From assembly GCA_012797215.1 (NCBI GenBank), contig JAAZPN010000273.1:1-38113 (forward strand): DNA of 38,113 bases, written 5' to 3'. Shown here piece after piece: positions 18,709 through 33,436 of the stretch (the first letter of the stretch is position 1; every line of letters starts with the position of its first letter). The notes under the pieces are model-generated. The model was given only the letters and a program-made list of their open reading frames with translations. It was not told the DNA's origin and made no database searches. Source of the DNA: Chloroflexota bacterium. GTDB lineage: Bacteria; Chloroflexota; Anaerolineae; Anaerolineales; Anaerolineaceae. Made by a program: the position numbers and the translations under genes.

Positions 18709-19638
18709 ATGGAAGCAAACACGCATCATCAACTTGTAATTATTGGCGGAGGACCAGCAGGTTTCGCGGCCGCGCTGTACGGCGCCCGCGCTGACCTAAA
18801 ACCTGTGATTTTTTCTGGCATGCTGCTGTATGGGCAGGCTTCCCAGACCGATGTGATTGAAAATTACCCGGGTTTCCCGGATGGTATCCATGGCGTGGAA
18901 TTAGGAAAGCTCTTTGAGCAGCAAGCCTCCCGTTTTGGGGCGATTATTGAGTACGACCAGGTGCTTTCACTGAACCTGCAGGCGCGACCTTTCACTGTTC
19001 AAACCTACAGCGGCAGCCTTAGCGCTGATTCAGTGATTCTGGCGATGGGGGCTGACCCCAAGAAATTGCATATTCCTGGAGAGGCCGAATTTACCGGCCG
19101 CGGCGTATCCTACTGCGGGACTTGCGATGGGTTCTTTACGCGCGGTAAAGATATCCATGTAATTGGTGGTGGGGATACCGCGCTTGAAGAGGCTATCTTT
19201 TTGACGCGATTTGCCCGCAGCGTCACGGTCGTGCACCGCAGGGACTCGCTTCGCGCTGGCGCGATTCTGGAAAACCGTGCCCGCGCCAATCCGAAAATTA
19301 GCTTTTTATGGAATACCGTCGTTGATGAAATTCGAGGGGACGAGAAAGTTCATGCTTTGGTGACACGCAACACCAAAACCGGTGAGATTAAGGAAGTTCC
19401 GACAGAGGCGGTTTTTGTATTTGTTGGACACAGTCCAAATACCAGTTTGATTGATGGTCAAATAACTCTGGATAAACAAGGTTACGTAATCGTCGACGCG
19501 AAAATGGGTACCAACATCCCGGGCGTTTTTGCCGCGGGAGAAATCGCGGACCCCCATTACCGGCAGGTGGTTACCTCTGCCGGAATGGGTGCCGCTGCCG
19601 CCATATCGGCGACACAATATCTTGAAAATCTGGAATAG
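18709..19638 (+). CDS. trxB: Thioredoxin reductase
   Basis: A 309-residue flavoprotein with FAD-binding GGGPAGFAAALYGAR, the redox pair in SYCGTCDGFF (Cys near 136 and 139; usually C-A-T-C), NADPH-binding IGGGDTALEEA, and the C-terminal FAD loop GVFAAGEIADPHYRQV. It reduces thioredoxin using NADPH. It is probably cotranscribed with the aminotransferase, ending 13 nt from the convergent LysM gene with no clear terminator between. It could supply electrons to thiol/selenol peroxidases such as the one at 32880-33356, although no thioredoxin is nearby. Confidence 0.93.
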   Translation: MEANTHHQLVIIGGGPAGFAAALYGARADLKPVIFSGMLLYGQASQTDVIENYPGFPDGIHGVELGKLFEQQASRFGAIIEYDQVLSLNLQARPFTVQTYSGSLSADSVILAMGADPKKLHIPGEAEFTGRGVSYCGTCDGFFTRGKDIHVIGGGDTALEEAIFLTRFARSVTVVHRRDSLRAGAILENRARANPKISFLWNTVVDEIRGDEKVHALVTRNTKTGEIKEVPTEAVFVFVGHSPNTSLIDGQITLDKQGYVIVDAKMGTNIPGVFAAGEIADPHYRQVVTSAGMGAAAAISATQYLENLE

Positions 19639-32811: not shown

Positions 32812-32842
32812 AAAAAAAGAATCACAAATTGCACTGTGATTC
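32812..32842 (-). terminator. Rho-independent terminator after the peroxiredoxin-like gene
   Basis: GAATCACA at 32819-32826 pairs with TGTGATTC at 32835-32842 around an 8-nt loop, followed on the minus strand by seven U. It lies about 40 nt after the stop codon of the putative selenoprotein, marking the real 3' end of that transcript. Confidence 0.88.
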
Positions 32843-32879: not shown

Positions 32880-33356
32880 TCAGGCGAATTCTTTATTGAG
32901 CGTATCAAGCAGCGCCAGAATTTCCGCATTGGCAGGGATATCGGTCATGTCGTGTCCGTAGTGGATGTAGCGCACAAGACCGGCTTTATCCACAATAATC
33001 TGACCAGGCATGCGACCGAGCTTGAATAGGTTCACCTGTTGACCTAGCAGTTTGAGGACTGAATGGCTTGGGTCGGGGAGACCGATAAAAGGCAACTTTT
33101 CCCGGAGGAAGTAGGCGTTGAAGGCTTGGGGGCTTTCAGGGCCGATCACCAGGATCTGCGCGGCGGCAGCAACAAATTTGTCGTAATCATGACGCAACTG
33201 CGCCATATGCCGCTGGCAGAATGGTCAAGTAAATCCGCGGTTCAAGACGAGAATGACATGCTTGAGACCCTTAAAATCCGAAAGCGCGATTGAATTTCCA
33301 AACACATCTACAAGACTAAAATCAGGAGCAGGCAGATTAAGGGTTACGAGAGTCAT
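32880..33356 (-). CDS. Putative selenoprotein: peroxiredoxin-like (AhpC/TSA, thioredoxin fold) with in-frame UGA for Sec44
   Basis: Reading from ATG 33356 with GGAGG 6 nt upstream, one frame runs 158 residues to TAA/TGA-type stop at 32880, interrupted only by TGA at 33227-33225 (codon 44). The start MTLVTLNLPAPDFSLVDVFG and the strand HVILVLNRGF are typical of AhpC/TSA proteins, and the TGA falls where the first Cys of the C-x-x-C site belongs: N-R-G-F-T-U-P-F-C-Q-R-H-M-A-Q-L. C47 would be the resolving Cys. Conserved Prx-like features continue after it (GLPDPSHSVLKLLG, MPGQIIVDKAGLVRYIHYG). It likely reduces peroxides using a selenol. A hairpin matching the bacterial SECIS rules follows the TGA. 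Alternatives are a nonsense mutation of a Cys codon or a sequencing error; the intact frame, start and terminator argue against decay. It lies 80 nt after the ABC importer genes. Confidence 0.82.
33189..33206 (-). promoter_or_regulatory. Candidate bacterial SECIS element
   Basis: Eighteen nucleotides after the UGA, ATGGCGC (33206-33200) pairs with GCGTCAT (33195-33189): seven pairs including one G-U, around the 4-nt loop AGUU. The apical loop begins 25 nt after the UGA and carries G in its second position. Known bacterial SECIS elements have a small apical loop 16-37 nt from UGA with a G among its first two bases, so this fits. It is wholly within the coding frame, as required in bacteria. 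Confidence 0.7.
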
Positions 33357-33436
33357 AGAAAGCCTCCGTTAATAAATCCCTTTTTACCGCGATTCGAAAG
33401 CCCAATATTCCATCAATGGTGTTGTTGGCTTCTTTG

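What the first reader, a model, noticed from the sequence alone, without database searches (positions are those of the whole stretch)
32880..33356. Unannotated selenoprotein: peroxiredoxin-like enzyme with UGA in place of the redox Cys (U-P-F-C)
Seen: from ATG 33356 (GGAGG 6 nt upstream) a single frame continues through TGA 33227-33225 to 32880. The two halves together form one thioredoxin-fold protein, and the TGA sits on the first Cys of an expected C-P-F-C motif. Known: Cys-to-Sec replacement at CxxC sites in Prx-like and thioredoxin-like proteins is a recurring theme in anaerobic bacteria. TGA is a normal stop for other genes here, so recoding would be local. Automatic calling would start at ATG 33206 and lose the catalytic residue and a core beta strand.
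Basis: partly seen in the sequence, partly recalled or inferred. Interest (0 to 1): 0.88.

Follow-up and report, generated by a model that had tools for sequence, protein, structure and literature searches.

The report
Misread selenoprotein, peroxiredoxin-like, in Anaerolineae
A small redox enzyme gene in an Anaerolineae-type bacterium contains an in-frame UGA that almost certainly codes for selenocysteine; it is of an already known kind of selenoprotein, and most of its closest database entries lack or misread its active site.

Summary
Confirmed. One frame runs from ATG 33356 through a single TGA (33227-33225) to a stop at 32880 and encodes a complete Prx-fold protein, motif U-P-F-C. The TGA is conserved: the 80 genome loci fetched as best relatives all carry it at the same codon, as do 102 of 102 distinct sequences at 40% identity or more. 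Downstream lies a hairpin with an AGUU loop; its codons are frozen (TTG 102 of 102, background 20%), and 3 of its 6 pairs show double compensatory changes. Distant relatives carry Cys at that column. The window's own genome is not held, but nine relatives' genomes, among them the colinear G002, have selA, selB and tRNA-Sec, 9 of 9 each. The kind is known: Prx-like UxxC selenoproteins were described by 2005 (PMC1088965; also PMC9312934). Sec sits at the Thr column of the peroxiredoxin TxxC motif, not at the peroxidatic-Cys column, so I read it as a thioredoxin-like UxxC redox enzyme on a Prx fold. Selenium insertion and substrate are untested. Real, well supported, a new member of a known kind.

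The parts
32880..33356 (-). Prx-like selenoprotein gene, 158 residues, Sec44 (U-P-F-C); final stop also TGA (32882-32880)
33225..33227 (-). in-frame TGA, codon 44, read as selenocysteine
   Evidence: TGA in 80 of 80 fetched genome loci and 102 of 102 distinct sequences at >=40% identity; Cys at this column in distant homologs
33190..33205 (-). predicted bacterial SECIS apical hairpin: 6-bp stem, loop AGUU (33199-33196); stem starts 19 nt and loop 25 nt after the UGA
33216..33218 (-). Cys47 codon (TGC), second residue of the redox pair; column of the peroxidatic Cys in peroxiredoxins
   Evidence: TGC in 102 of 102
33363..33367 (-). GGAGG ribosome-binding site, 6-nt spacer to ATG 33356
   Evidence: sequence
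33204..33206 (-). internal ATG (Met51) at which the mechanical ORF starts; it overlaps the 5' arm of the SECIS hairpin
32819..32842 (-). terminator-like hairpin followed by seven T, downstream of the gene
   Evidence: 1 found, 1.2 expected in shuffles, so not significant by count

Best explanation
The gene makes a 158-residue selenoprotein of the Prx-like UxxC kind. A hairpin just downstream of UGA-44 recruits SelB with Sec-tRNA, so UGA-44 is read as selenocysteine, while the final UGA ends the protein (hairpin supported by comparison; recruitment inferred from the established bacterial mechanism). The protein has a peroxiredoxin fold with a thioredoxin-like active site: Sec44, just before the first active-site helix, is the attacking nucleophile; Cys47 one turn on resolves it as a selenenylsulfide; a thioredoxin / thioredoxin-reductase system re-reduces it. 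Most likely task: reducing peroxides or disulfides under oxidant stress. The confidence given is for Sec at codon 44 and for the kind of protein; the chemistry is inferred (about 0.55 for Sec44 as nucleophile with Cys47 resolving; peroxide versus disulfide substrate is open).
For: Full-length Prx domain across the TGA. TGA at codon 44 in 80 of 80 fetched loci, 102 of 102 distinct sequences >=40% identical, and 128 of 128 at >=45% in the larger set of 171. Sec/Cys pairs: of the 171, column 44 is Sec in 149, Cys in 16, another residue in 6. Synonymous freezing just downstream: GCG 97 of 99, CAG 101 of 101, TTG 102 of 102 (backgrounds 23, 68, 20%); the same in the 30 loci found without codon patterns (TTG 30 of 30, GCG 29 of 30). 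Hairpin: 99.0% of cells paired versus at most 66.3% when slid, 3 of 6 pairs with changes on both sides (shuffled mean 0.5; 0 of 500 shuffles as high). MFE versus synonymous shuffles: mean z -2.07 (n=102) against -0.03 for control windows (n=204). tRNA-Sec, selB, selA over cut-off in 9 of 9 relatives, selD in 8 of 9. AlphaFold model pLDDT 90.9, helix from residue 45; best PDB matches are peroxiredoxins. U44 aligns with the Thr, and C47 with the Cys, of the Prx TxxC motif in the printed 2ywn alignment; Sec-peroxiredoxin-like L187 and L191 have their TGA at column 47. Members that keep Sec44 but lack Cys47 (UxxA 5, UxxD 2, UxxT 1, UxxS 1 of 171) point to residue 44 as the essential one.
Against: No genome is held for the window, so its own sel genes are unseen. 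In the class sample selA is common anyway (167 of 199 over cut-off), so 55 of 59 carriers of the close Sec form having a selA match is a weak test; the other 4 have no selA match, and of these 2 have a clear tRNA-Sec, 1 a borderline one and 1 none over cut-off. G002, the colinear relative, lacks selD over cut-off, and 1 of 9 carriers titled as other phyla lacks selA. The tRNA-Sec model also rings over cut-off in 5 of 14 control genomes. The percentage of paired cells is also high in shuffles (97.7%), because the columns are conserved. Fold energies of Sec and Cys forms overlap: UxxC -16.9 to -3.6 (n=140), CxxC -13.0 to 0.0 (n=12), and one Sec form (L168) shows no hairpin. The window's own z is only -1.39. 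Rfam at gathering thresholds found nothing in the window. There are no selenium or protein data. Cys47, invariant in close relatives at the peroxidatic column, would also fit a mechanism in which Cys47 attacks and Sec44 resolves.
Confidence: 0.92

Rival explanations
1. Selenoprotein, but working as a true peroxidase in which Cys47 (peroxidatic column) attacks peroxide and Sec44 is the resolving residue.
For: Prx fold, with the best PDB matches all peroxiredoxins in the rows shown; Cys47 invariant in 102 of 102 close relatives and aligned to the Prx motif Cys.
Against: Members with Sec44 and Ala/Asp/Thr/Ser at 47 exist (9 of 149 Sec44 sequences); Cys44 forms likewise have Ser/Thr at 47 in 4 of 16.
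Confidence: 0.25
2. Pseudogene or sequencing error: TGA is a nonsense mutation of TGC/TGT.
For: A single base separates TGA from TGC/TGT; one distant Sec-like sequence (L168) without a hairpin beside a Cys sister (L170) may be such a case.
Against: Same TGA in 80 of 80 fetched loci, titled as several phyla; otherwise intact frame; frozen downstream codons.
Confidence: 0.02
3. UGA is read as another amino acid (for example Trp, code 4), or termination occurs and a 108-aa protein starts at Met51.
For: 40 of the 120 listed database proteins show W at this position and 73 start at the post-UGA Met.
Against: UGA also ends this gene, and relatives carry Sec machinery. W is what table-4 translation of TGA gives (inferred; the DNA behind those proteins was not seen). 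A Met51 start removes the redox pair and the strand at 33-38, and no ribosome-binding site is apparent before it (by eye). At column 44 the 22 non-Sec sequences have Cys in 16 and Trp in none.
Confidence: 0.04

Closest known systems
Prx-like selenoprotein with UxxC, also called Prx-like thiol:disulfide oxidoreductase (PF00578; PMC1088965, PMC2398784, PMC9312934, PMC13188914; passages seen)
   Different: The published reference sequence (WP_010940744.1) was not available for comparison; the passages seen name no Chloroflexota member of this family. Among the relatives gathered here Sec forms outnumber Cys forms (149 to 16 of 171, a set biased to close kin), whereas PMC2398784 lists 2,740 Cys homologs against 225 selenoproteins for Prx-like 1
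Sec-peroxiredoxin (TxxU, PrxU)
   Same: Prx fold, Sec at the active-site helix
   Different: Sec at column 47 with Thr at 44; here Sec at 44 and Cys at 47
SelL-related redox protein (NCBIfam NF040769)
   Same: best NCBIfam hit, 76.5 bits, best stretch residues 9-105
   Different: below the curated cut-off of 120 bits; motif UxxC here, SelL UxxU (recalled)
Thiol-disulfide oxidoreductase ResA / TlpA, CxxC
   Same: thioredoxin-type two-residue active site at the same columns (CGSC in L223 and L230; ResA identity of these two is recalled from the motif)
   Different: only weak similarity (34.7 bits against a cut-off of 170)

Membership tests
Prx-like UxxC selenoprotein (PF00578) | PF00578 domain | tested here: met
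   72 bits, cut-off 26, E 5.7e-20
Prx-like UxxC selenoprotein (PF00578) | Sec codon in a UxxC motif | tested here: met
   U44-P-F-C47; UxxC in 140 of 171 aligned relatives
Prx-like UxxC selenoprotein (PF00578) | Sec/Cys pairing with Cys homologs | tested here: met
   Cys at column 44 in 16 of 171, e.g. L167, L170-L172
Prx-like UxxC selenoprotein (PF00578) | bacterial SECIS: hairpin downstream of UGA with G in a small apical loop | tested here: met
   loop AGUU in 95 of 96, GGUU in 1; by comparison only, bSECISearch not run
Prx-like UxxC selenoprotein (PF00578) | direct kinship to the published reference WP_010940744.1 | not testable with these tools
   sequence not at hand; no look-up by protein accession
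Prx-like UxxC selenoprotein (PF00578) | selenium shown in the protein | not testable with these tools
   needs experiment
Sec-decoding organism | selA, selB, selC (tRNA-Sec) in the genome | tested here: inconclusive
   own genome not held; 9 of 9 relatives incl. G001 and colinear G002 have all three
Sec-peroxiredoxin TxxU (PrxU) | Sec at the peroxidatic column after Thr-x-x | tested here: not met
   Sec at the Thr column, Cys at the peroxidatic column; PrxU model NF040737 not among the hits for P0002
SelL-related redox protein NF040769 | curated cut-off 120 bits | tested here: not met
   76.5 bits

The most novel reading that the evidence does not exclude
This gene belongs to a Sec-dominated clade of Prx-fold enzymes in which Sec has replaced the Prx Thr and the old peroxidatic Cys has become an expendable resolving residue. 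In part of the clade the gene sits among light-stress genes (DNA photolyase, MerR-B12-binding regulator of the CarH/LitR kind), so it may be a photo-oxidative-stress selenoenzyme under B12-based light control.
Probability: 0.2. Interest if true: 0.6.

Novelty: new member of a known kind. Interest (0 to 1): 0.42.

Why it matters
The active site of an enzyme common in Anaerolineae is lost or misread in most of the closest database entries: of the 120 listed matches, 73 start after the UGA, 40 show W, 4 show C, and 3 show something else; no NCBIfam model reached its cut-off for the four members tested. The set gathered here (102 distinct close Sec genes with a covarying SECIS, plus Cys sisters) would support a curated model and correct the records. 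The shift of Sec to the Thr column, with some members lacking Cys47, makes the order of attack in Prx-like selenoenzymes directly testable.

Tried and rejected
Rfam at gathering threshold and ARAGORN on the window found nothing, so neither SECIS nor tRNA-Sec comes from there. A scan of viral contigs gave no relative. I considered pseudogene, code-4 Trp, and a Met51 start, and rejected them on the conservation of the TGA and of the downstream codons. I expected selA to tell carriers from non-carriers in the class; it hardly does, as 167 of 199 have selA over cut-off. Promoter scan: nothing on the gene's strand. Neighbourhood: the light-gene link is absent from the window and from L001 and L002, so it is only a lead. 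Kinship with the published reference sequence could not be tested. bSECISearch is not available here.

One search tabulated 108 distinct matches and used the 102 at >=40% identity; the other 6 are Cys paralogs at 27-31%. A2 holds 96 distinct 45-base stretches of those 102. One search fetched 58 regions, 54 gave a match (L178, L180, L183, L186 did not), and five of the 54 (L219, L220, L225, L228, L229) showed no column 44. One search used tblastn matches reaching from residue 40 or before to 100 or beyond with columns 44 and 47 present (171 kept; L225, L228, L229 printed as dropped; matches of smaller span dropped uncounted; loci L081-L107 and L138-L156 left out as machinery or context regions; duplicates removed). 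The tree used 89 of the 171.

Full report
What is there. On the minus strand the frame from ATG 33356 to TGA 32882-32880 holds one internal stop, TGA 33227-33225. GGAGG at 33367-33363 lies 6 nt upstream of the ATG. Translation with TGA as U gives 158 residues with N-R-G-F-T-U-P-F-C. PF00578 covers residues 9-131 (72 bits) and PF08534 9-139 (56 bits), so the domain spans the TGA.

The TGA is conserved. A scan of GTDB species genomes with an alignment of 37 homologs (A1) gave 518 relatives, of which the best 80 were kept. All 80 have TGA at codon 44 (row list; one search counts 81 with the window). Most are titled as Anaerolineae or Chloroflexota; others as KSB1, Myxococcales, Deltaproteobacteria, Syntrophaceae, Desulfobacterales, Actinobacteria and Thermoleophilia. 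Together with the 30 loci of a separate class search the set is 102 distinct sequences at 40% identity or more, all TGA. In 199 genomes of the class of G001, the 59 best-scoring genomes each carry a TGA inside the match (my count from the rows).

Sec/Cys pairs. In a sample of 198 genomes of the phylum of G215, 10 have a match at E<=1e-15. L167, L170, L171 and L172, all in one genome (G300), have TGC at codon 44, with Ser or Thr at 47. L221, L222, L224 have CPQC/CYQC and L223, L230 CGSC. Of 171 aligned homologs: UxxC 140, UxxA 5, UxxD 2, UxxT 1, UxxS 1, CxxC 12, CxxS 3, CxxT 1, TxxU 2, SxxU 1, other 3. In a tree of 89 of them, a branch with support 100/95 holds 55 rows, the window among them: 51 Sec, 4 Cys; over the whole tree the Sec label needs at least 6 changes.

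SECIS. In 96 distinct sequences the consensus fold is one hairpin at nucleotides 23-38 counted from the T of TGA, 6 pairs around the loop AGUU, i.e. window 33205-33190. Loop AGUU in 95, GGUU in 1. Standard pairs in 99.0% of cells (97.7% in shuffles, as the columns are conserved; at most 66.3% when slid). Three of 6 pairs have changes on both sides, 5 cells in all, 0 of 500 shuffles as high: G-C to C-G in L136 and L137, G-C to U-A in L069 and to A-U in L056, G-C to A-U in L073. Synonymous codons in the hairpin are frozen: Ala52 GCG 97 of 99, Gln53 CAG 101 of 101, Leu54 TTG 102 of 102, against gene-wide backgrounds of 23, 68 and 20%. The 30 loci found by a search that uses no codon patterns show the same. 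Against synonymous shuffles of each gene, the folding energy of nt 16-45 has mean z -2.07 (n=102; the window alone -1.39), against -0.03 for control windows (n=204). Some more distant Sec clades show other hairpins near the same place, such as CACC-UGGA-GGUG in L162 (by eye) and CAACUC-GUG-GAGUUG in L181. Against: L168, a Sec form, lacks one, and the energy ranges of Sec and Cys forms overlap. Relatedness inflates the codon counts; they are not independent events.

Machinery. No genome is held for the window. L002 is colinear with window 36360-29917 at 78% DNA identity; L001 matches from the gene through 29915 and a short piece upstream. In the genomes of L001, L002, L003, L004, L005, L019, L033, L054, L058: tRNA-Sec over cut-off 9 of 9 (53-72 bits; 5 of 14 control genomes also ring over the cut-off), selB 9 of 9, selA 9 of 9, selD 8 of 9, G002 failing. 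Of the 59 class genomes above, 55 have a selA match (E 1e-90 or better); G116, G136, G188, G192 have none, and tRNA-Sec is clear in G116 and G192, borderline in G188, below cut-off in G136. As 167 of 199 class genomes have selA over cut-off, this is consistent but hardly discriminating. Nine carriers titled as other phyla: selA in 8 of 9.

Known or new. [quoted passage not shown] PMC2398784 (passages) lists Prx-like 1, pfam00578, UxxC. PMC9312934 and PMC13188914 (passages) list 'Prx-like thiol:disulfide oxidoreductase', PF00578, UxxC/UxxU, reference WP_010940744.1. PMC1794560 (passages) counts 8 such proteins. The window's gene meets the domain, motif and SECIS criteria. The listings of my searches show no paper whose title or abstract start is about this gene in Chloroflexota; that is a limited search of an open-access library, and I did not read the papers listed there beyond the five named. 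No NCBIfam model reached its cut-off for the four members tested.

Context. In 19 of 80 loci a photolyase or MerR-B12-binding homolog lies within 3 kb, in 10 of 80 within 1.5 kb, against 0 of 40 control loci (sel genes and tRNA loci of relatives, about 1.5 kb flanks); none in the window. Pfam supports the photolyase (L003) and MerR + B12-binding domains (L018). This is a lead, not a result about the window.

Verdict. The observation and the selenoprotein reading stand. It is a new member of a known kind, often mis-called, of moderate interest.

Noticed in passing
L003, L018, L037, L056, L064, L071 and others (19 of 80 loci): Homologs of this gene sit within 3 kb of DNA photolyase or a MerR/B12-binding (CarH-like) regulator, often with DUF4345, DUF1295, DUF3159, SDR or MFS genes.
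   Followed up: partly
L168 (genome G226): A TGA at codon 44 with Ser47 and no downstream hairpin, sister to a Cys form (L170): possible recent mutation, error or an odd SECIS.
   Followed up: no
L139-L143, L145 (selD of relatives): selD over cut-off has an in-frame TGA in 7 of the 8 relatives' genomes that have it (one of them, G001, as a second copy), so SelD may be a selenoprotein there; position of the TGA not checked.
   Followed up: no
L173-L177, L179 and L181, L182, L184, L185, L189, L190: More distant class members with TGA at the same column: UIQC/ULQC/UMQC/UMSC, and UGPD/UPWC/UGPC/UGVC/UGTC. The first group keeps AGUU in the loop on a different stem.
   Followed up: partly
database proteins P0025 and P0031: Leu and Arg at the Sec column; source DNA not seen, each could be one base from TGA.
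   Followed up: no
window 18709-19638: Thioredoxin-reductase-like flavoprotein with a CGTC motif, a candidate component of the electron donor system.
   Followed up: partly
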